Below, piece by piece: positions 19,013-62,422 of a stretch of 64,000 nt of DNA. The stretch is from positions 558,001 through 622,000 of the forward strand of contig NZ_CP058335.1 in assembly GCF_013391105.1 (NCBI RefSeq), written 5' to 3'. Position 1 is the first letter of the stretch; each line of letters opens with the position of its first letter. A program made the position numbers and the translations under genes. Origin of the DNA: Natronomonas salina. GTDB taxonomy: Archaea > Halobacteriota > Halobacteria > Halobacteriales > Haloarculaceae. The notes below the pieces were generated by a model. It made no database searches. It was not told the origin of the DNA and was given only the letters and a program-made list of their open reading frames with translations.

Positions 19013-20230
19013 TCAGTGGACTGTGGCGCTGTCACAGGCGCACCCGTCCTGTGGCGAGTCATCGCGTCCGGGTTCCCAACGGACGCTCTCTCCCCACGGG
19101 TTGACGCGACTGGCGATATTCGCCGCCGCGTTAATATCCGCTTGGAATCCCGATACGTGGCAGTCGTCGTTCGAACACACGAACTCCGCTTGCTGACTCC
19201 GCCGACCGAGACGGTTACAGGCATGGCACGTCTGCGAGGTGTACGCCGCATTGACGTACTCAACGCGAATGCCTGCCTCGGTTGCTTTGTCTTCGATTCG
19301 GCCTTGTAGCCGGGCGAACGCCCACGCATGAAGCCGCCGGTTCATGAATTTGCCGTAATCCAGCCGTTCCCGGATGTACGACAGGTCTTCTAGGACAATA
19401 ACCGGATTCTTGAACTGCTGGGCATACTCAATGGCTTGTCGAGACGCCTTCTCGACAATATCTGTGAGGGCGTTTTGGTAGTGGTTGAATCGTTCGTCCA
19501 AGCGCCACTCGGCGGCATCTCGGGACTGAAGCCGCCGAAGTGTAGTGAACATCTCTTTGCGAAGCTGTTGCGCTCGACTGCCGCTGACGAGCAGGGGTTT
19601 CCGTGGCGCGTCGCGTTTGAGGGCACAGCCCGTGATCAACGCGCTCTCGCCTATGTCGAAGCCGACAGGGGTTTCGTCAGTATCGTCCGAGTCAGTCGGT
19701 CCCTCGACCGAGTATTCGACGGTGACGTGCAACTCCCATGACGTGCGGTGACGCTGTAGACGGAGTTCGCCCGCATTTGCACCCTCGGAGAGCAGGTCGA
19801 ACCATAAGGATTCCTGCTCCGGGTTAATCCGAAGCGGGATCCAAAAGTTCGTCCCGCGACCGGGTTGCGGGACTTGCCAGACGTAACCGTGTTCGCGCTC
19901 TTCGGAGTAGTCAAACTTCGCGGCCCGGTTGACGAGTCTAATCGGATGCTCCTCGTCCAACTCCTCGGCATTGAACGTGGAACATAGTTTCGGGACGTAG
20001 GATTTGAGCGCATCTTTGGCTTGGTACGGTAGTTTGTAGGGCGTCACAACTTCATTGACAGCAGACATTGTGTCCGCCCCGTTGTCGAAGGCGTCGTGGA
20101 GTGCTTGACGGTAGATATCCAACAGCCGCTGTAGGCGTTGCTCTTTGCCCGTGGTGGGCGTAGCGAGCGTGGCCTGTAGCGTCTTGGTCACCGTCTCGGA
20201 CACACTACCCATTAGGCTACCGGCACTCAT
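19013..20230 (-). CDS. tnpB: TnpB (OrfB), RNA-guided RuvC-type nuclease of an IS200/IS605 element
   Basis: The intact 405-residue TnpB has all three RuvC acidic residues: D192 in VGFDIGES, E281 in IVLEDLSYIRERL and D365 in FQADINAAANIA. A zinc finger lies before the last one, with C335-x2-C338 and C352-x4-C357. The N-terminal helical domain (about 25-115) would bind guide RNA and target motif. TnpB enzymes cut DNA next to a short motif under guidance of the element's right-end RNA, helping keep the element. The ATG at 20230 was used; an ATG six codons later is possible. Confidence 0.93.
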   Translation of the reverse strand: MSAGSLMGSVSETVTKTLQATLATPTTGKEQRLQRLLDIYRQALHDAFDNGADTMSAVNEVVTPYKLPYQAKDALKSYVPKLCSTFNAEELDEEHPIRLVNRAAKFDYSEEREHGYVWQVPQPGRGTNFWIPLRINPEQESLWFDLLSEGANAGELRLQRHRTSWELHVTVEYSVEGPTDSDDTDETPVGFDIGESALITGCALKRDAPRKPLLVSGSRAQQLRKEMFTTLRRLQSRDAAEWRLDERFNHYQNALTDIVEKASRQAIEYAQQFKNPVIVLEDLSYIRERLDYGKFMNRRLHAWAFARLQGRIEDKATEAGIRVEYVNAAYTSQTCHACNRLGRRSQQAEFVCSNDDCHVSGFQADINAAANIASRVNPWGESVRWEPGRDDSPQDGCACDSATVH

Positions 20231-29454: not shown

Positions 29455-29910
29455 TCACCCTGCCCGAGCGACCAGCCCCTGCTCCTTCACGAGGGGCCAG
29501 TAGTACCACCAGACGACGACCCACGTCGCTAGCGCACCCAGTGGAATCACGAGTGGGCCCGCGCTCCCGTAGACCTGATACAGCCCGTAGGCCACCTGCG
29601 CGTGCGCGATGCCAGCGAGGAAGAGCAACCCGGCTGTGAGCCGCGGGTCCTCGTAGCCCCATATACTTCCCACCGCGCACGCGAGCGCGCCCGCGTGGAG
29701 TACTACCCCAAGCGGCCAGGCCTCAAGACGGCGCGGAAGCCCTGCAGTGTAGACGAACAGGTAGTCGTAGAGGTGGACGACGTTGAACGGACCCGTATTC
29801 ACGAGGCCGAACGAGAAGACGAGACTGGCGCCGTCCTGCAGCACGACGACGGTCCACGGCAAGAGTCCCACGAGGAGGACGGCCAGCAGGCGACGGCGTG
29901 GCGAGGTCAC
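29455..29910 (-). CDS. Haloarchaeal membrane protein (TIGR04206-like)
   Basis: The 151-residue protein has about five hydrophobic helices, beginning LLAVLLVGLLPWTVVVL and ending with a Trp/Tyr-rich helix (ATWVVVWWYYWPLV). The layout resembles the haloarchaeal family TIGR04206, by memory only. It has no known function. It follows the GTPase gene in the same direction with 22 bases between them and may be co-transcribed. Confidence 0.65.
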   Translation of the reverse strand: MTSPRRRLLAVLLVGLLPWTVVVLQDGASLVFSFGLVNTGPFNVVHLYDYLFVYTAGLPRRLEAWPLGVVLHAGALACAVGSIWGYEDPRLTAGLLFLAGIAHAQVAYGLYQVYGSAGPLVIPLGALATWVVVWWYYWPLVKEQGLVARAG

Positions 29911-29932
29911 GAGCCTCCCCTTGCCCGCATCG

Positions 29933-31048
29933 TCACTTCCGGGCGACGATGCGGAGGACGTCCTCGTCCTGCAGTTCGTGGTCGCGGCCGACCTGCTGTT
30001 CGTCGTGTTTCGCGGAGGGGCCGGTCACGCGAGCGAACCGGAACCGGTCGTCGAAGCTCCCGCCGAGCTTCTGGAGGGCGTCCTCGACGGTGTTGTCCTC
30101 CTCGGTGAGGACGAGCGGCTCCTCGCGGTCGACGCCGCGGCCCGGCTTGTCCATGTAGATGCGGATCAGGCCCAGTCGCTCCCAGATAGTCTCCTTCAGC
30201 GACTCGAGACCCTTCTCCTCCTCGGCGCTGATGAAGACGGTCTCCTCTGGGTCGATATCGTGGTCACGGAGGTTCTCCTTGACCGTCTCCATGTAGTCGG
30301 GTTCGATGAGGTCGACCTTGTTGACACAGACCGCGGAGGGGAGGTACTCACGGTTGTCCTGCAGGGAGTCGACCAGCTGGTCGATAGTGAGGTCCTCGCG
30401 GATGGTGACGTCGGCGTTGACGAAGTCGTACTCCCGGAGGACGCCCATGATCGTCTCGTCGTCAAGGCTCACCCGGTCGGAAGTCGTGAGGTTGATGCCG
30501 CCCTTGTGCTTCTTGCGGATGTTCACCTGGACGGGCTCCTCGTCCAGCCGGACCTTGTTCTTGTAGAGTTCGTCGTAGAGCCGCTGGTACTGGTCGATCT
30601 CGAAGGCCGACAACACGAACAACACGAGGTCCGCAGTTCGGACGACAGAGAGGACAGCCTGCCCGCCGCCGCGGTTCTCGGCGGCGCCCTCGATGAGCCC
30701 GGGGACGTCCAGCAGCTGGATGTTCGCGCCGCGATACTCCAGCATTCCGGGGTTGACGTCGAGGGTCGTGAACTCGTAGGAGCCCGTCTCGCTCTCGGCG
30801 TTCGTCAGGGCGTTGAGGAGCGTCGACTTGCCGACCGAGGGGAACCCGACGAGCGCGACCGTCGCGTCGCCGTGCTTCTCGACGGCGTAGCCACCGCTCC
30901 CACCGCCAGAGGACTGCCGGCGCTCCAGTTCCTCCTTCTTCTCCGAGAGCTTGGCCTTCAACCGACCGATGTGCTGTTCGGTCGACTTGTTGTAGGGCGT
31001 CTCGGCGATCTCCTCTTCGATCGCCTCGATGTCCTCTTTGAGCCCCAT
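29933..31048 (-). CDS. DRG-type GTP-binding protein with TGS domain
   Basis: The 371-residue GTPase belongs to the DRG/Obg family. An N-terminal helical region (EDIEAIEEEIAETPYNKSTEQHIGRLKAKL) is typical of DRG proteins. G1 is GFPSVGKST (about 68-76), G3 DVPGLIEGA, G4 NKVDL (in CVNKVDLIEP), and a C-terminal TGS domain covers about 295-371. DRG proteins bind ribosomes and are thought to help translation. The start is the ATG before GLKEDIE, the conserved N-terminus of the family. Confidence 0.93.
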   Translation of the reverse strand: MGLKEDIEAIEEEIAETPYNKSTEQHIGRLKAKLSEKKEELERRQSSGGGSGGYAVEKHGDATVALVGFPSVGKSTLLNALTNAESETGSYEFTTLDVNPGMLEYRGANIQLLDVPGLIEGAAENRGGGQAVLSVVRTADLVLFVLSAFEIDQYQRLYDELYKNKVRLDEEPVQVNIRKKHKGGINLTTSDRVSLDDETIMGVLREYDFVNADVTIREDLTIDQLVDSLQDNREYLPSAVCVNKVDLIEPDYMETVKENLRDHDIDPEETVFISAEEEKGLESLKETIWERLGLIRIYMDKPGRGVDREEPLVLTEEDNTVEDALQKLGGSFDDRFRFARVTGPSAKHDEQQVGRDHELQDEDVLRIVARK

Positions 31049-31902
31049 TACGAGAACCCATTCGCCGATGCCGAAAAAGCCGTTCGGTTGTCCTCGTTCG
31101 GCGGCCACCCGGGTACCCCTCCAGAGTCCCTACAGGCTGGGCCAGATACCCGTCGATGAACTACAGCGACTGTTCGCCCGCAAGAAGTACTGTACCTGCG
31201 GTCTGAACCTCACGGCAACGGACACCAGATACTCGAGTCCTGCGACCCGAATCCAGGTGCGTGCGAATCTCCCGGGAGAGCACTACTGACGGCCATGCGT
31301 CCGACGGCGAATGATACACATACGAATACTGAGTGATATCTCTCCAAACCAGAAATCCCCGGACGGCACGTCCCTGTAGTTCCTCATACTCGGGCTCTGA
31401 AGACCGGATATCTATGATTCTAAATAGGTTTGACCGAACCGCTGATTCGCCCGGTTCGGCTATTTCCGTCGCCGAGAGGTCGTCTCCGTCCGGATTCGTC
31501 CATCCGGACGTCGAGCGTCGAACCGTGGTATCCGGTGCTGAAAACCGCAGGCGGGCGAGTCGGTGTAGTACATTTCCACCCCATCTCGCGGCTGTCACCG
31601 CAAACTGCCGTCTTTTGCCCCTGAACAGGAGGTACTGAACCCAGCCCTCTGTATAGCGGATATCGCCGGTTACCGTCACCGCTCGCTGCTCTCGCGGCGA
31701 TACTCATCTTACACGATCCAGGTTTCCTGATAGCCTCGTTCGACACCAACTACAGCGATCTACCGGGCGTATTCTTGCGGATGAGCCACTCTCTGTAGTT
31801 CCGGGGAGGCTGGAGGACCGAGAAGATCGAGCCGGGAATGCGCCAAGGCAGTACAGACACCGAATCACCGACCGTTATCACCTGCCGCTACCAACGTCAT
31901 CT
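31049..31902. other. 850-base region without a recognisable gene
   Basis: Open frames on both strands (longest 172 codons, minus strand, 31161-31679) lack the acidic composition and codon pattern of neighbours. The words CTACAG/CTGTAG recur (near 31161, 31373, 31751 and 31793), but no longer repeat is clear. It may be a decayed accessory segment beside a region that collected IS elements. Confidence 0.5.
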
Positions 31903-32067
31903 ATGGACTCGAAGAAGCGCCTCGCCTACAACATCGCCTGCGTAGGCCTCGCTTTCGTCGGCGTCTTCCACGTCGTCTTCTCGACAATCTTTGACTACGG
32001 CTTCCGGCAGGTCGGCGGCCTCATCATCGCGGCGGCGCTCTTCGGCCTGCTACTCATAAATGCATGA
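31903..32067 (+). CDS. 54-residue two-helix membrane protein
   Basis: The frame encodes DSKKRLAYN, a helix (IACVGLAFVGVFHVVFSTIF), a short loop DYGFRQV and a second helix (GGLIIAAALFGLLLI) before the stop. Composition and ATG start fit a real small membrane protein. Function is unknown. It lies 76 bases before the next small gene in the same direction. Confidence 0.6.
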   Translation: MDSKKRLAYNIACVGLAFVGVFHVVFSTIFDYGFRQVGGLIIAAALFGLLLINA

Positions 32068-32143
32068 CCGGTTACTTGCGGTTGTTTGATATGCACACAG
32101 GGTTTCAACAGTTTAATACCCCCTTACAAGAAACTCTACGGTG

Positions 32144-32344
32144 ATGGCGACCCCCTCCAGCTTCCGTGACAGCACCCAGATTGTGCTCCCGTGGGAGACG
32201 CTGGACCCCATCCACGGCGAACTGGAGTCGGAGTTCACGGTGACGGTCCACGACGAGGGATGCAAGGCCCGCATCATCGGCAGCCCCCTCGTGATCAAGG
32301 AGGTCAGCGACTTCCTCGCGCGCCACGGCGTCTCGCTGCCCTGA
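32144..32344 (+). CDS. Small conserved haloarchaeal protein, 66 residues
   Basis: The protein (ATPSSFRDSTQIVLPWETLDP, later EFTVTVHDEG, IIGSPLVIKEVSDFLARHG) is soluble with a mixed alpha/beta pattern. From memory it resembles a small protein encoded upstream of rpl11 in other haloarchaea, which fits its place here if the two IS units between are removed. Its TGA stop is also the first three bases of the element-2 terminus TGACATCC, so the insertion may have replaced the original last codons. A GTG lies one codon before the chosen ATG. Confidence 0.8.
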   Translation: MATPSSFRDSTQIVLPWETLDPIHGELESEFTVTVHDEGCKARIIGSPLVIKEVSDFLARHGVSLP

Positions 32345-32394
32345 CATCCTCCCACAGCTAAAGCCGTGGGGTTCCCCCACTGGGGGTGGAACCC
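32342..32394 (-). ncRNA. Right end of element 2, likely 3' part of a TnpB guide RNA
   Basis: Two hairpins occur as in element 1. One pairs CCCACAGCT with AGCCGTGGG (one mismatch, 32351-32370); the other pairs GGTTCC with GGAACC (32370-32393) with extra CCC/GGG pairing inside. The hairpins overlap the last codons of tnpB (GSTPSGGTPRL) and its stop. The adjoining flank, minus strand GGGCAGCGAGACGCC, would be the guide. Confidence 0.5.
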
Positions 32395-33512
32395 ACGGAA
32401 ACGGAGAGGTTCGCAGGTTCGTCGTCACGTTGGACGATGACCTGCGTTTCGGGCTGTGCCAGTACAGCCCCCACCTTGGACAGTGGTTTCGAGAACTTGC
32501 CCAAGGCTCGTTTGCCGATGTTCAGCGCACCGTTCTTGTCCGCGCTATCGTCCAATCCACACACGGGACACTCAAAGCGTCCCTGCGTCTCTCGGACACC
32601 ATCGCAAGCACAGCGATTGCACGTATTTGACGTGTCGTATTCTTCAACCAACTGTACGTTGATGCCTGCGCCGTGGGCTTTGTACTCAATGTAGTTGAGC
32701 AGTCGGGCGAACGGCATCTTGTGGGTCTTGTCGTTGACGTACCGCCCCTTGTCGTTGTCCTTACGGATACCACCAAGATCACCCACGACGATCACCGCGT
32801 TCCGTTCCTCGGCATCCTCCACGATTTGTCGTGCAATCTTGTGGAGGCGGTCGCCTATTTTTCGAGCTTCGGCGTCACCGATTCGTTCGACAACCTGCGT
32901 TCCCTGTCGGGGTTTTGCCTTCCCGATGGACTTGCGAAGTTGCTTGTAGTGTTCGCGGATACAACGGACTTCCTCGCCATAGAAGGTGGTTTTCCGGTCG
33001 GAGAGGAACGAGCAAGTGGCGATCCAGCGTGCACCCATATCGATGGCCAGCACGTCGTCGTACTCGTCTTGAACGGTCACAGACCGCTTGACGACGAGAT
33101 GGACGTACCAGTCACCATTACGGCGCACCAGTTCGCTGTCCCGAATGTCGCCCTCGCGAACGAGTTGTTCGTCTTTGTGTGGGACGTGGGCAGGACACCA
33201 GATGGAGTTCCCCTGCCCGCGCTCGGGGTCGTAGACCGGGACTTTCACCCACCACGACGAAAGAACGGTATCCTCGTCGTAGGCCACGTCGAACACATCG
33301 TTGCGAAGAACGACGGGTTGTTCGGTGTCAGGGTTCGGGTCTTTCTGCCGCTGGACTTTCGACGCTTGTTGGGCAGTCGCAGAGTAGAGGTCGGCGTCTC
33401 CGCCGTGAACCTCGCTCTGGAATGCCTGATACTCACGGTCAAGGAGGTCGGCTTTCCTGTTGGTCAGCGAGTGGAGTTTAACCCGCACCGTGGTTAGGAC
33501 GTTGTGTTGCAC
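32358..33512 (-). CDS. tnpB: TnpB of a lineage without the standard RuvC-II glutamate
   Basis: The 384-residue protein begins with GTG and the family start TVRVKLHSLTNRKADLL. RuvC-I is D158 (LAIDMGARW) and RuvC-III is D325 (SADKNGALNIG). A zinc finger has C298-x2-C301 and C315-x2-C318. The RuvC-II strand reads IVVGDLGGIR, with Gly244 where element 1 has Glu281. An acidic pair, E289-E290 in LVEEYDTSNTC, lies 45 residues later and might supply the missing carboxylate. It is either a TnpB with a rearranged active site or an inactive one. The reading frame itself is intact. Confidence 0.88.
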   Translation of the reverse strand: MQHNVLTTVRVKLHSLTNRKADLLDREYQAFQSEVHGGDADLYSATAQQASKVQRQKDPNPDTEQPVVLRNDVFDVAYDEDTVLSSWWVKVPVYDPERGQGNSIWCPAHVPHKDEQLVREGDIRDSELVRRNGDWYVHLVVKRSVTVQDEYDDVLAIDMGARWIATCSFLSDRKTTFYGEEVRCIREHYKQLRKSIGKAKPRQGTQVVERIGDAEARKIGDRLHKIARQIVEDAEERNAVIVVGDLGGIRKDNDKGRYVNDKTHKMPFARLLNYIEYKAHGAGINVQLVEEYDTSNTCNRCACDGVRETQGRFECPVCGLDDSADKNGALNIGKRALGKFSKPLSKVGAVLAQPETQVIVQRDDEPANLSVSVGSTPSGGTPRL

Positions 33513-33518
33513 GACTAC

Positions 33519-33851
33519 TCACCTGCTATATTCACTCGGGGATTTCCATTTTAGCTCACCAACGCCATAGCCATTCGACTGGAGCCCTCTGAGGGCCTTT
33601 CTGCTGTTGAACAGACGCCGAACAGCCATTTGGAGGCTTTTCGAGTACACATCACTGCATTCCGGCCATCGTTTCTTCCACGTCGGTAAACGGTTCTGTA
33701 GGGTAGTGTACGAGGGCTTCTCATCATTGGGAGCAGCGCGATGTTGACCGAGTGAGTGATTATATACCTGCCTACAGATATCGATGTGCCTCCGAGCTTC
33801 GTTAGCTACCGCTTCAGAAGGATACACTCGGTACTTGTATGTCTGCTCCAC
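33519..33851 (-). pseudogene. N-terminal 110-codon fragment of a second tnpB
   Basis: The fragment (EQTYKYRVYPSEAVANEARRHIDICRQVYNHSL, later VYSKSLQMAVRRLF and GELKWKSPSEYSR) matches the first third of the element-3 TnpB and not element 2. Normal members continue REYRSLTYNQSG; here the frame stops where element-2 sequence begins. The RuvC domain is absent, and no C-terminal part is found on the other side of element 2. The start is GTG. Confidence 0.75.
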
Positions 33852-33874
33852 ACTGAAATTCTGTCTCGTAATCG

Positions 33875-33884
33875 TATTTAAAGC
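33875..33884 (-). promoter_or_regulatory. TATA-like box upstream of the truncated tnpB
   Basis: The minus-strand motif CTTTAAATAC, a good TATA match, lies about 28 bases before the GTG of the tnpB fragment and about 95 bases upstream of rpl11 on the other strand. Confidence 0.4.
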
Positions 33885-33976
33885 ATAGACTGGAATAATG
33901 GCATTCCCGTGTCGGTGACAACCATGGGCCAGCCTCGTTATAAACGCTTAAAGCCGCCGAACGTATTCCATCCAAC

Positions 33977-34468
33977 ATGGCTGGAACTATCGAAGTACTC
34001 GTCCCCGGTGGCCAGGCCAACCCCGGCCCGCCGCTCGGCCCGGAGCTCGGCCCGACCCCGGTGGACGTGCAGGCGGTCGTCAACGAGATCAACGAGCAGA
34101 CGGCGGCGTTCGACGGGACGGAGGTCCCGGTCACCGTCGACTACGACGACGACGGCTCGTTCAGCATCGACGTCGGTGTCCCGCCGACGGCCGCGCTCAT
34201 CAAGGACGAGCTCGGCTTCGACACCGGCTCCGGCGTCCCCAACGAGGACTTCGTCGCCGACATGTCCGCCGAGCAGCTGAAGACCGTCGCCGAACAGAAG
34301 CTCCCGGACCTGCTGGCCTACGACGTCCGCAACGCCGCCAAGGAGGTCGCGGGCACCTGCGTCTCCCTCGGCGTCACCATCGAGGGCGAGGACGCCCGCA
34401 CGTTCAACCAGCGGCTCGACAACGGCGAGTTCGACGACACCTTCGCGCAGTCCGAGCCGGCGGCGTAA
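33977..34468 (+). CDS. rpl11: 50S ribosomal protein uL11
   Basis: The 163-residue protein has the conserved N-terminus TIEVLVPGGQANPGPPLGPELGP and an rRNA-binding C-terminal domain (NAAKEVAGTCVSLGVTIEGEDARTFNQRL). It forms the GTPase-associated centre with the L10/P1 stalk. It is usually followed at once by rpl1, but here two unrelated genes (2.7 kb) intervene. The ATG is preceded by AT-rich DNA, with CGTTATAAACGCTTAAA as a probable promoter at about 33936-33952. Confidence 0.97.
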   Translation: MAGTIEVLVPGGQANPGPPLGPELGPTPVDVQAVVNEINEQTAAFDGTEVPVTVDYDDDGSFSIDVGVPPTAALIKDELGFDTGSGVPNEDFVADMSAEQLKTVAEQKLPDLLAYDVRNAAKEVAGTCVSLGVTIEGEDARTFNQRLDNGEFDDTFAQSEPAA

Positions 34469-34577
34469 CTCACCGAACCGATTTCTCTGCGGCTTGCCAC
34501 TCGACTACGTCCGATAGCTGTGCAGCCGGGGTGCTGGAGCCGTCGGACCTATCCGTTCAGGACCAGTAGTTGTAGGC

Positions 34578-35036
34578 GTGAGCAGCCAGTCCGACGCCCC
34601 CGGTGAAACAGAGACTGAAACCGAGGTCGACGTCCCGACCGATCGGCCAGTCCTGCTGTTCGACGGGGTCTGCAACCTCTGTACCGGGTCGGTCCAGTGG
34701 ATCATCGAGCGTGACCCGGAGGGGCAGTTCCGGTTCGCGTCCCTGCAGTCCGACGCCGGCCAGACCCTCCTGGCAGAACTGGGGTTGCCGGAAGAGTACA
34801 TCGATTCCATCGTCCTCGTGGACGGCGACGACTACTACACTCAGTCAACGGCCGCCCTCCACGTGGCGAAGCGGCTCGGGCTGCCGTACTCGGCGCTGTA
34901 CCCGCTCGTGGCCGTCCCGGAACTCGTCCGCGATAGCGCCTACGACGTCGTCGCGAACAACCGGTATCGGATCTTCGGCAAGAAGGACTCCTGCATGATG
35001 CCGTCGCCGGAGGTCCAGGACCGATTTCTCGATTAG
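34578..35036 (+). CDS. DCC-family thiol-disulfide oxidoreductase-like protein (DUF393)
   Basis: The 152-residue protein carries the family signature VLLFDGVCNLCTGSVQW with the paired cysteines C-x2-C (about residues 34-37). It also has the conserved FRFASLQSDAG, ALHVAKRLG and the ending YRIFGKKDSCMMPSPEVQDRFL. DCC proteins have a thioredoxin-like fold; their physiological substrates are unknown. The start is GTG with a Thr/Glu-rich N-terminal tail of about 22 residues. It is one of two genes lying between rpl11 and rpl1. Confidence 0.88.
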   Translation: MSSQSDAPGETETETEVDVPTDRPVLLFDGVCNLCTGSVQWIIERDPEGQFRFASLQSDAGQTLLAELGLPEEYIDSIVLVDGDDYYTQSTAALHVAKRLGLPYSALYPLVAVPELVRDSAYDVVANNRYRIFGKKDSCMMPSPEVQDRFLD

Positions 35037-35211
35037 CTGAGACGCACCACCGTTTCCAGGCACCTCGGCGGACACCTAGGACGAGATAGCGAGACTCTTC
35101 TAAGGCGGATGGTCGGCACCGTGGAATCCCATCTCCGCACCCATTTTTGGACGTCAATGTCGGGGCACGCGGCACAGAAACTATACGCTATCGTCTCGAA
35201 AAATATTGTTG

Positions 35212-37266
35212 ATGGCTAACAACCCACGTGGTCGTGACGGTCGAGGTGCTCCCGACGACGCGAACGGTGTGAGCCGGCGGTCGTTGCTGAAGGGTGCCAG
35301 CGCAGCGGCGGCGACGTCGGTGGCGTTCGCGGCGGCCGATTCCGTCGCCGCGGATCCGGTCGTCGAGGAAGTGTCCGTCGAGATGAGCGACGGCGTGACC
35401 ATCAGGGGACGACTCTTCTTCCCCGACGACGGCAGCGGCGACAAGGCAGACGGCCAGTTCCCGGCGGTCGCGACGTTCGAACCGTATCGGAACGGCAGCG
35501 ATACCGTGAGCGGCCCGCCGAAGCCCCGCGGGACCGACCAGCTCGTCGAGGCGGGGTACATCCGCGCCGAGTTCGAGGTCCGCGGCACCGGCAGCAGCGA
35601 GGGGAAGTTCAGGCTCGGCGACGACCGCGAGCGCCTGGACTACGGCGAACTCGTCTACTGGCTGCACGACCACGCGAAGACGACCGGCGACGTCGGCCTC
35701 TACGGCGTCTCCTACCGTGGGCTCAACCAGTGGATGGCCGCGACGGGCGTCGCACGGGTCGACCGGCCCGAACAGCCCCTGCAGGCGCTGTTCCCCATCG
35801 TCACCGGGGTCGACGGCTACCGCGACGTCCTCTGGAACGGCGGGATGTACGATACGGTCTTCGCGACGTTCTGGCTGGGCCTCGTCGCGGGGTCGCCGCT
35901 GGCGGCCAGCGCGCTGTCGCTCGACGAGATGGACACCGTCGAGTGGCTCGACCTCAACCAGGACCACATCCAGGGCGCCTTCGAGGGGCCGCTGGCGTCG
36001 ATCATCGGCTCCCATCTCGGCGGCGAGCAGGCCTACCGCGACCTCGAGAGCTCCCGGGAGCCGGACCTCCCGAACGTTGTCGGCCAGGACATCCCCGCGT
36101 TCACCATCCAGGGGTGGTACGACATCTTCCAGCCCGGCAACACCCTCCCGTACACGCAACTGCAGAACCTCTGGGCCGACCGCGACCAGTTCGCCCCGAT
36201 GGATCCCGACCAGCCCGTGACCGGCCGCTACCAGTGCGTCCAGGGGCCGTACTTCCACAGTTCGAGCTTCGGCGACCTGGAGTTCGGGTGGGCGCGGCAG
36301 TGGTTCGACCGCTTCCTGAAGGGCGAACGCAACGGTATCGACGAAACCGACACGCCCCTGCACCTCTACCAGGTGTTCGGCGACCGGTGGGTCGACGCCC
36401 AGACCTGGCCGCTCCCGGAATACGGCGATCGATTCGTCGAGACGTACTACCTCCAGGCCGGCCGGACCGGGACGGCGCCGCACTCGGTCAACGACGGCCT
36501 CCTCAACCCCACGCCGGGCGGCAGAGAAACAGCCAGCGACCCGCTCCCCTGGCGGCTCCACAACCCCTGCAACCAGGGCACCAACGAGGAGGGGACCTTC
36601 GGGCTCGCGCCCAGCACGCGGTGTACCGAGAGCAACCACGGGTTCGAGACGGGCACCCTCGTGTACACGACGCCGCCGTTCAGCGACGACCGGAACATCG
36701 CGGGCCCCATCGCGGCGAGTCTCTTCGCCAGCACCCAGAACACGAACACCGCCTGGGTCACCACCCTCAGCGTCGTCGCCCCCGACGGGAGTTCGACGCT
36801 CATCTCGAAGGGCCAACTGCTCGGTTCCTTCCGCGGCCTCGACGAGGACCGCTCCTGGTACGTCGATCCCGAGGACAGCGACCCCGGCTACCGCCCCGAC
36901 TTCCCGCCGCAGGCGAAGACTCCAGACGGCGTCGAGACCGACGAGGGGAAGCTGATCCGGCCGTATCGCGGGTTCACGCGGGCCGAAGAGGAACCCGTCG
37001 AACCCGGCGTCGTCGAGCGCTACGACATCACGATGGACCCGGTGTTCGCCAGGCTCCCGGCCGACCACCGCCTCAGACTCGCCATCCGGACCTCGTCGTC
37101 GTGGGCGACGCCCCTGGCGAAGGACCTCGACGACGTCGTCGGCACCTACCAGGTCCAGCGGACCGCCGACCACCCCTCCCACGTCAACGTCCCCTACGTC
37201 TCCGGCCCGCTCCCCGAGAGCGACACGCAGTGGGGGCGCTGCGAGTACAACTGCGGGCCGCCGTGA
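35212..37266 (+). CDS. Tat-exported CocE/NonD-type alpha/beta hydrolase (X-Pro dipeptidyl-peptidase family)
   Basis: The 684-residue enzyme has a twin-arginine signal (SRRSLLKGASAAAATSVAF). A peptidase S15-like catalytic domain (about 55-430) shows EMSDGVTIRGRLFFPD, EVRGTGSSEGKF, the nucleophile elbow GVSYRG, the acid in GWYDIFQPGN and a His in QGPYFHSS. The C-terminal jelly-roll typical of CocE/X-Pro peptidases follows (about 450-680). Substrates may be acyl esters or Pro-peptides; this cannot be decided from sequence. Two TTG codons lie directly before the chosen ATG. Confidence 0.85.
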   Translation: MANNPRGRDGRGAPDDANGVSRRSLLKGASAAAATSVAFAAADSVAADPVVEEVSVEMSDGVTIRGRLFFPDDGSGDKADGQFPAVATFEPYRNGSDTVSGPPKPRGTDQLVEAGYIRAEFEVRGTGSSEGKFRLGDDRERLDYGELVYWLHDHAKTTGDVGLYGVSYRGLNQWMAATGVARVDRPEQPLQALFPIVTGVDGYRDVLWNGGMYDTVFATFWLGLVAGSPLAASALSLDEMDTVEWLDLNQDHIQGAFEGPLASIIGSHLGGEQAYRDLESSREPDLPNVVGQDIPAFTIQGWYDIFQPGNTLPYTQLQNLWADRDQFAPMDPDQPVTGRYQCVQGPYFHSSSFGDLEFGWARQWFDRFLKGERNGIDETDTPLHLYQVFGDRWVDAQTWPLPEYGDRFVETYYLQAGRTGTAPHSVNDGLLNPTPGGRETASDPLPWRLHNPCNQGTNEEGTFGLAPSTRCTESNHGFETGTLVYTTPPFSDDRNIAGPIAASLFASTQNTNTAWVTTLSVVAPDGSSTLISKGQLLGSFRGLDEDRSWYVDPEDSDPGYRPDFPPQAKTPDGVETDEGKLIRPYRGFTRAEEEPVEPGVVERYDITMDPVFARLPADHRLRLAIRTSSSWATPLAKDLDDVVGTYQVQRTADHPSHVNVPYVSGPLPESDTQWGRCEYNCGPP

Positions 37267-61185: not shown

Positions 61186-62422
61186 ATGAATTACAACTAC
61201 AGGTATCGAATCGAGCCGAGTGAGGCTGTTGAAGCCGAGTTAGAATATCATATTGATACCTGTAGGCAGCTCTATAACCATTTTCTGTACGAACTTCGTA
61301 CCACCGATAAGTACCTGTCGTACACCGCGATGCAAAATATGCTGCCCGGTCTGAAGGACTGGTGGGATCAGTTGAACGACGTCTACTCTAAAGTGTTGCA
61401 GATGGTCGCTCGACGCATTAGTGACAACATCAATCGACTCAAAGAAAAGAAAGAAAACGGCCAGAGTGTCGGGAAACTCGTGTGGAAGCGCCCAAGAGAA
61501 TATCGGAGCCTCACTTACAACCAGTCTGGTTTCGAGCTCAAGAACACGAGTGAGCAGACTGTTCTCTCCCTTTCCAAAATTGGTGAGATGCCGATACACC
61601 TCCACAGGGACATTCCCGACGACTCCCGTGTCAAACAAGTCACTATTAAGCAAGAGAAAACGGGCAAGTGGTACGCTATCTTCGGCATCGAAACCGAACA
61701 GGACGTACCTGAGAAACCCGCGTTGGACGACGTTGATCGCAATGCTATGGTCGGCATTGATGTTGGCATCCTCAAATATACTCACGACACCGATAGTACG
61801 ATGGTCGGCAGTCTCGACCTCGAAGCAGAAGTACGAACGGCTAGAACGTGAGCAGCGAGCGTTGAGTCGCAAAGAAGAAGGCTCGCAAAACTGGCACAAA
61901 CAATGTCGCCGCATGGCGCGCGTCCACGCCCGTATCGTCCGAAAACGGCGAGACTTTTTGCACAAATTATCTGCGTACTACGCTCGGGAGTACGACCTCG
62001 TGGCCGTCGAAGACCTCGACGTTCACGGGATGATGCAGCTCCCATCTAATAGCCAGAACAGAGCTTCCGCGGCATGGCGGACATTCATCGACTTCCTCGA
62101 ATACAAGTGCGACCGCGAAGGGACTCACTTCGTGCAAGTCGAACCGAAGGGGACGACAGAGGAATGTGCAAAGTGCGAGGTTAAAGTTGCAAAGGAGTTG
62201 TGGGTTCGCGAGCACTCTTGTCCGACATGCGGATTCGAGACTGATCGTGATGAGAACTCTGCCTACAACGTATTGAAACGCGGTCTTCAGGAGTTAGGTG
62301 TGGGACACGCCGAAGTCACGCCTGCGGAGACTGCACTCACTACGTCCATGACTGGTGGTGATCCCGCCGTCGTGGATGCAAAGTGTGTCGTCGAAACAGG
62401 AAGCCCCTCCCGGAACGAGTGA
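61186..62422 (+). pseudogene. tnpB: tnpB with a single-base frameshift
   Basis: The first part (NYNYRYRIEPSEAVEAELEYHIDTCRQLYNH to GIDVGILKYTHDTDSTMVGSLDLEAE) is in one frame and the rest (YERLEREQRALSRKEEG to the end) in the next. The switch lies at about 61826-61831, where GCAGAAGTAC has one extra A compared with the expected GAG-TAC. RuvC-I Asp (GIDVG), RuvC-II Glu (VAVEDLDVHGM), the zinc-finger cysteines (CAKC, CPTC) and RuvC-III Asp (TDRDENS) all remain, but in two frames. The first frame gives a 221-residue truncated protein. A sequencing error is possible. Confidence 0.85.

What the first reader, a model, noticed from the sequence alone, without database searches (positions are those of the whole stretch)
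32358..33512. TnpB lacking the standard RuvC-II glutamate, with an acidic pair 45 residues later
The RuvC-II strand is IVVGDLGGIR, with Gly244 in place of Glu. D158 and D325 are kept, and E289-E290 directly precede the zinc finger. Rearranged TnpB active sites and nuclease-dead TnpB-derived repressors are both known types. The protein sits next to the conserved rpl11 locus, so a regulatory role is conceivable.
Basis: partly seen in the sequence, partly recalled or inferred. Interest (0 to 1): 0.52.

Follow-up and report, generated by a model that had tools for sequence, protein, structure and literature searches.

The report
Haloarchaeal TnpB with relocated catalytic glutamate
This is an intact RNA-guided DNA-cutting protein of a salt-loving archaeon whose one missing active-site residue has moved to a second, already described position, in a transposon remnant that lost its own transposase; it is a new member of a known kind.

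Summary
The ORF is a full-length 384-aa TnpB with Gly at the standard RuvC-II position (G244). The acidic pair is E290-E291, not E289-E290. Only E291 is conserved (78 of 78 rows with letters; the partner is E in 41 of 78). E291 lies exactly seven residues before the first zinc cysteine, the published 'alternative glutamate' (Ealt) position (PMC10711439), and the protein matches that paper's sequence pattern. Among 124 archaeal TnpBs with both columns readable, every one has Glu at exactly one of the two positions (72 and 52). Best reading: an ordinary rearranged-site, nuclease-type TnpB with triad D158-E291-D325. It is not a dead repressor and not a two-glutamate novelty. A rearranged RuvC-II TnpB has been shown to cut (PMC10278001). 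In the window the element is a derelict chimera. Its tnpA, present in the loci of all 37 other close copies, has been replaced by the N-terminal 110 aa of an unrelated TnpB. The guide RNA end is intact and covarying, and dN/dS is 0.086. No regulatory role is indicated. Not tested at the bench.

The parts
32358..33512 (-). tnpB, 384 aa, GTG start, Ealt type (triad D158, E291, D325)
33039..33041 (-). codon of D158 (RuvC-I, DMG motif)
   Evidence: 81 of 81 rows with letters are D
32781..32783 (-). codon of G244, the canonical RuvC-II glutamate position
   Evidence: Gly in 80 of 80 rows of this family; Glu in 52 other TnpBs
32640..32642 (-). codon of E291, alternative RuvC-II glutamate, seven residues before C298
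   Evidence: 78 of 78 rows with letters
32538..32540 (-). codon of D325 (RuvC-III, SADKN)
   Evidence: 78 of 78 rows with letters
32559..32621 (-). zinc finger CxxC...CxxC (C298, C301, C315, C318), TNB domain
32351..32370 (-). terminal hairpin of the element's right end / omega RNA (CCCACGGC-UUUA-GCUGUGGG on the - strand); overlaps the tnpB stop codon
   Evidence: helix 2, 98.8% of cells paired, with two-sided changes
32374..32386 (-). second conserved hairpin (CCCCC-AGU-GGGGG)
   Evidence: helix 1, 97.1% of cells paired, C-G to U-A in 16 sequences at one pair
32341..32344 (-). right end of the element (TCAG); its complement CTGA supplies the stop codon of VNG_1110C
   Evidence: homology between copies ends here
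32321..32340 (-). predicted guide (20 nt after the right end), antisense to the 3' end of VNG_1110C
   Evidence: inferred from element end; not measured
33513..33527 (-). last 15 bases upstream of tnpB shared with relatives: 3' remnant of the lost tnpA and the short spacer
   Evidence: DNA matches begin at 33527
33519..33851 (-). N-terminal 110 aa of a different, canonical-type TnpB (64% identical to L121), followed by a stop; replaces tnpA
33868..33871 (+). GTAA (TTAC on the - strand): candidate target at the left end, the putative original stop codon of VNG_1110C
   Evidence: inferred; TTAC precedes the left end in relatives; left boundary here is uncertain
32141..32344 (+). VNG_1110C-like gene whose stop codon was the target
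   Evidence: Pfam PF24397 106 bits
33977..34468 (+). rpl11, the gene on the other side of the insertion

Best explanation
The protein is a complete, nuclease-type TnpB in which the RuvC-II glutamate has moved from the end of beta-strand 4 (now G244) to the end of beta-strand 5 (E291), seven residues before the zinc finger. With D158 and D325 it rebuilds the metal-binding D-E-D triad (inferred). It belongs to a haloarchaeal IS200/IS605 family, tnpA-tnpB, that targets TTAC (shown by comparison). Its 3' end encodes an omega RNA whose terminal hairpin lies next to a guide taken from the flank (structure shown, guide inferred). In this genome the element sits in the stop codon of VNG_1110C beside rpl11 (right end shown, left end inferred). 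It has lost tnpA to an unrelated TnpB fragment and is probably immobile, but tnpB and the RNA end are intact. The RNP would be expected to cut chromosome copies or incoming DNA that carry the uninterrupted VNG_1110C end (inferred).
For: Exact match to the published Ealt pattern (PMC10711439). Strict one-or-the-other distribution of the glutamate, 72 and 52 of 124 readable rows. E291, D158 and D325 invariant while E290 varies. AlphaFold model (mean pLDDT 79.5, pTM 0.65): G244 ends strand 239-245, E291 follows strand 286-290, D158 ends strand 153-158, D325 opens helix 324-336. This is the topology described for Fanzor, where the Glu lies between the fifth strand and the TNB domain (PMC11423790 section 7). 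Fold matches AsCas12f (Z 23.9), the TnpB-omegaRNA complex 8h1j (Z 18.8) and mimivirus Fanzor2 (Z 17.3). dN/dS 0.086, inside the family range 0.065-0.116. Covarying RNA end, 0 of 500 shuffles. tnpA in 37 of 37 other close copies' loci, Y1_Tnp confirmed in two.
Against: No model coordinates were available, so no distance was measured. No activity test. The purifying selection may predate the loss of tnpA, and the window copy has a long branch among close copies (0.15 against a median of 0.082). It carries replacements unique among the compared copies at otherwise invariant sites (Q205T, V219I, D220G; 37 of 37 others differ). The active rearranged ortholog in print belongs to a clade I could not match to this one. 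The left boundary of the composite is uncertain.
Confidence: 0.8

Rival explanations
1. The window copy is a decaying, inactive remnant: its fold is normal but it no longer cuts or is no longer expressed.
For: tnpA is lost and replaced by a fragment; long branch; unique replacements at invariant sites.
Against: Open frame, all catalytic and zinc residues, both RNA hairpins and a dN/dS of 0.086 without relaxation.
Confidence: 0.15
2. A nuclease-dead, RNA-guided repressor (TldR-like) acting at or near rpl11.
For: Canonical glutamate is missing; the gene stands alone without tnpA.
Against: E291, D158 and D325 are invariant; relatives are mobile elements at unrelated sites; no TTAC-plus-guide match with TTAC intact elsewhere in the genome.
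Confidence: 0.03
3. D245, next to the missing glutamate, replaces it as the third catalytic acid.
For: D245 is conserved in 78 of 80 rows.
Against: Canonical TnpBs carry the same D or N after their Glu (alignment A1), and two relatives have Asn there, so it is a shared strand-end residue.
Confidence: 0.02

Closest known systems
TnpBs with Ealt and D-Phi-G (PMC10711439)
   Same: RuvC-I DMG, Glu seven residues before the first zinc Cys, Asp in RuvC-III; exact match to the paper's pattern
   Different: Here haloarchaeal, with a Y1-type tnpA in relatives; the window copy has lost tnpA
RuvC-II rearranged TnpB clades RII-r3 and RII-r5 (PMC10278001)
   Same: Canonical RuvC-II Glu absent; one RII-r5 ortholog cleaves
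   Different: Clade assignment of this protein could not be tested
Fanzor and pro-Fanzor
   Same: Same alternative Glu position; fold match to Fanzor2 9b0l, Z 17.3
   Different: DMG instead of DPG; IS200/IS605 instead of IS607 or eukaryotic elements
ISDra2 TnpB
   Same: Overall fold (8exa Z 16.6), RNA-guided element nuclease
   Different: Canonical Glu position in ISDra2 (recalled)
TldR RNA-guided repressors
   Same: TnpB-derived, stand-alone
   Different: TldRs have lost catalytic residues (recalled; start of the abstract of PMC13418256 seen in a listing); here the triad is complete

Membership tests
TnpB (RNA-guided nuclease family) | Family profile above curated cut-off | tested here: met
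   NF040570 142.4 bits, cut-off 100
TnpB (RNA-guided nuclease family) | omega RNA formed by the 3' end of the gene and element right end | tested here: met
   Structure and covariation; expression not tested
TnpB (RNA-guided nuclease family) | Guided dsDNA cleavage | not testable with these tools
   bench assay needed
Ealt TnpB with D-Phi-G | E-x6-CxxC-x(12,18)-CxxC-x(4,8)-D with a non-P residue in RuvC-I D-x-G | tested here: met
Ealt TnpB with D-Phi-G | No Glu at the canonical position | tested here: met
   Gly in 80 of 80 rows with letters
Fanzor / pro-Fanzor | DPG in RuvC-I with Ealt | tested here: not met
   DMG; pattern with DPG fails
TldR nuclease-dead repressors | Loss of the catalytic triad | tested here: not met
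   D158, E291, D325 present and invariant
Cas12f (type V-F CRISPR) | Adjacent CRISPR array | tested here: not met
   No direct repeat of 20 bases or more in window 29500-36000; whole genome not scanned
IS200/IS605 element, complete | tnpA of Y1 type with tnpB | tested here: not met
   Absent in the window locus, present in 37 of 37 other close copies' loci
RII-r5 clade | Placement in that clade's tree | not tested
   Reference sequences not held

The most novel reading that the evidence does not exclude
A tnpA-free, chimeric TnpB locus kept by the host or by its own cutting: a stationary site-specific nuclease that protects its occupied VNG_1110C-rpl11 allele against the empty one in a multi-copy chromosome. 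The site was hit twice: Halomicroarcula sp. SYNS111 carries an intact copy at the same stop codon, so the stop-codon TTAC may be a favoured harbour.
Probability: 0.12. Interest if true: 0.45.

Novelty: new member of a known kind. Interest (0 to 1): 0.2.

Why it matters
It adds a widespread haloarchaeal family with strict conservation to the rearranged-site TnpBs and gives a clean sequence test of the shift (Glu at exactly one of two positions). The locus shows how such an element can lose its transposase while nuclease and guide RNA stay intact. For the wider question, whether relocated-glutamate TnpBs cut and with what side activity, these close, intact copies are convenient test subjects. 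It is not surprising to a specialist.

Tried and rejected
Both glutamates as a catalytic pair: rejected, E290 varies. D245 as the substitute: rejected, Asn in two relatives. Cas12f with CRISPR: PADLOC hits are to Cas12f profiles, but no repeats lie nearby. Virus-borne relatives: none among viral contigs with this single-sequence query, which finds close relatives only. An outer stem pairing the CGTGGG upstream with CCCACG: no covariation beyond shuffles (413 of 500 shuffles as high), so not claimed. Shared ancestry of the window and L065 insertions: L065 pairs with another copy of its own genome, L059 (100/99), and the forced pair is 34.5 log units worse, but the AU test does not formally reject it (p 0.0999). 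An earlier tree had L065 cut out wrongly (11% of columns) and is superseded. Stop-codon preference in general: open frames before TAA across 44 flanks are mixed, so no general preference is claimed. RNA families: only a tRNA in the window reaches Rfam thresholds.

Full report
Check of the observation. The ORF at 32358..33512 on the minus strand encodes 384 residues from a GTG start and is a TnpB by NCBIfam (142.4 bits, cut-off 100) and by the Pfam TNB zinc domain. The glutamates are E290 and E291, one later than stated, and six residues separate E291 from the first zinc cysteine C298.

Family conservation. In 82 aligned rows (72 distinct; the window counts twice, as Q and L001) the counts over rows with letters are: D158 81 of 81, G244 80 of 80, D245 78 of 80 (two Asn), E290 41 of 78, E291 78 of 78, D325 78 of 78. 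The acidic 'pair' is therefore one conserved residue with a variable neighbour.

The swap. I aligned archaeal TnpBs found here from haloarchaea and other families of the phylum. In an 80%-non-redundant set of 47, 32 have Glu only at the 244 column, 12 only at the 291 column, none both, and 3 are gapped fragments. Of all 132 distinct rows, 52 and 72 respectively, none both and none neither, 8 dropped for gaps. In the non-redundant set, the residue left at the canonical place in Ealt proteins is Gly in 11 of 12 and Ser in one. In the window's own genome, of 16 TnpB-like hits, three are of this type (window, L005, L014), 12 are canonical, and one fragment (L003) has Glu at the canonical column and a gap at the other. 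In a tree of 40 rows (7 of the 47 left out as fragments or partial rows) ten of the twelve Ealt rows form one clade (100/100); L005 and L014 sit apart on long branches, so one or two origins cannot be settled.

Structure. AlphaFold2 on alignment A1 (32 rows) gave mean pLDDT 79.5 and pTM 0.65. G244 ends strand 239-245, E291 follows the next strand (286-290), D158 ends strand 153-158, D325 opens helix 324-336. Best matches are AsCas12f 8dzj (Z 23.9, 3.5 A over 318), TnpB-omegaRNA 8h1j (Z 18.8, 4.0 A over 289) and mimivirus Fanzor2 9b0l (Z 17.3, 4.4 A over 299). Coordinates are not given to the user, so no distance was measured. The Fanzor structure paper places its catalytic Glu on the loop between the fifth strand and the TNB domain (PMC11423790, section 7), which is where E291 lies.

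What is known. PMC10711439 (section 23 read, other passages seen) defines Ecan about 50 residues before the zinc finger and Ealt six residues upstream of it, and reports an Ealt clade with D-Phi-G in RuvC-I. The window protein matches that pattern and not the Fanzor-type DPG one. PMC10278001 (passages) names RuvC-II rearranged clades and reports one RII-r5 ortholog active in a TAM assay. The survey that described these clades (PNAS 2023, recalled) is not held. Searches for a tested haloarchaeal TnpB of this kind listed none that I recognised; this covers only open-licence papers.

The element. Relatives at 88-92% identity lie in many haloarchaeal genera at unrelated flanks. All 37 other copies of the close group have a Y1-type tnpA in the locus, nearly always directly upstream; the window has none (Pfam Y1_Tnp in two copies). 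In 29 copies whose left end could be read (35 tried, 5 without the tnpA motif, 1 without the end motif) the left end follows TTAC (T 28, T 28, A 28, C 26 of 29). The right end closes with GATGTCAG in nearly all copies, after which homology stops.

The guide RNA. The last 180 nt of the window element fold better than every one of 200 shuffles (z -3.84). On 42 sequences (window plus 41 of the 53 right ends found; 10 further loci gave no right end) two hairpins are paired in 98.2% of cells with 35 two-sided changes; no shuffle of 500 reaches this. The related sequences make such counts optimistic, but slid controls fall to 43-58% paired.

State of the window copy. The 15 bases before tnpB match relatives; further upstream lies the N-terminal 110 aa of a canonical-type TnpB (best relative 64% identical), ending in a stop six bases before the tnpB start codon. 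The only Y1 transposase found in the genome lies beside another TnpB and is 44% identical to the family's tnpA. dN/dS of the window copy against the others is 0.086 by median, within the range of the 38 copies (0.065-0.116); this does not date the selection to after the loss of tnpA. Residues at 205, 219 and 220 are unique at otherwise invariant columns.

The site. The right end abuts VNG_1110C so that its last bases provide the gene's stop codon. In the genus, VNG_1110C was found directly before rpl11 in 7 of 11 relatives examined and was not found in the other 4 (upstream sequence printed for ten of the eleven); the printed sequences with VNG_1110C show no insertion. Halomicroarcula sp. SYNS111 (L065) carries an intact tnpA-tnpB element at the same stop codon; joining its flanks restores VNG_1110C ending in TAA, then rpl11. 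By sequence L065 groups with another copy in its own genome (100/99), which suggests two separate insertions, though the AU test leaves shared descent open (p 0.0999). In the window a GTAA at 33868-33871 is the likely other half of the target; the left boundary is inferred, because the relatives of the fragment suggest another possible boundary.

Regulation. A pattern of TTAC plus 14 guide letters has 17 matches with up to three mismatches in the genome, and none keeps TTAC; the reversed control pattern has 4. Nothing points to control of rpl11 or another gene by this TnpB.

Conclusion. The finding is real, but the rearrangement is of a published kind, located at E291. The protein is most likely a competent nuclease left behind in a transposase-less element.

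Noticed in passing
window 33519-33851 (-): N-terminal fragment of a canonical-type TnpB joined in front of the Ealt tnpB, replacing tnpA.
   Followed up: yes
L065:2468-4170 and window 32341: Element of the same family at the same VNG_1110C stop codon beside rpl11 in Halomicroarcula sp. SYNS111; the right end regenerates the stop codon in both.
   Followed up: partly
L005:1213-2301 and L014:1312-2685: Two further TnpBs of the same genome have Glu at the alternative position but lie far away in the tree, hinting at a second origin of the shift.
   Followed up: partly
L073:3050-4312 and L074:3050-4312: Halorubrum californiense copies repeat the segment around AVIVVGDLGGI within tnpB.
   Followed up: no
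window 61189-62296 (+): Another TnpB apparently split into an N-terminal and a C-terminal frame (G000:619189-619503 and 619865-620296).
   Followed up: no
window 19019-20203 (-): A canonical-glutamate TnpB (L004) elsewhere in the same window, apparently without tnpA (the genome's only Y1 transposase hit lies elsewhere).
   Followed up: no
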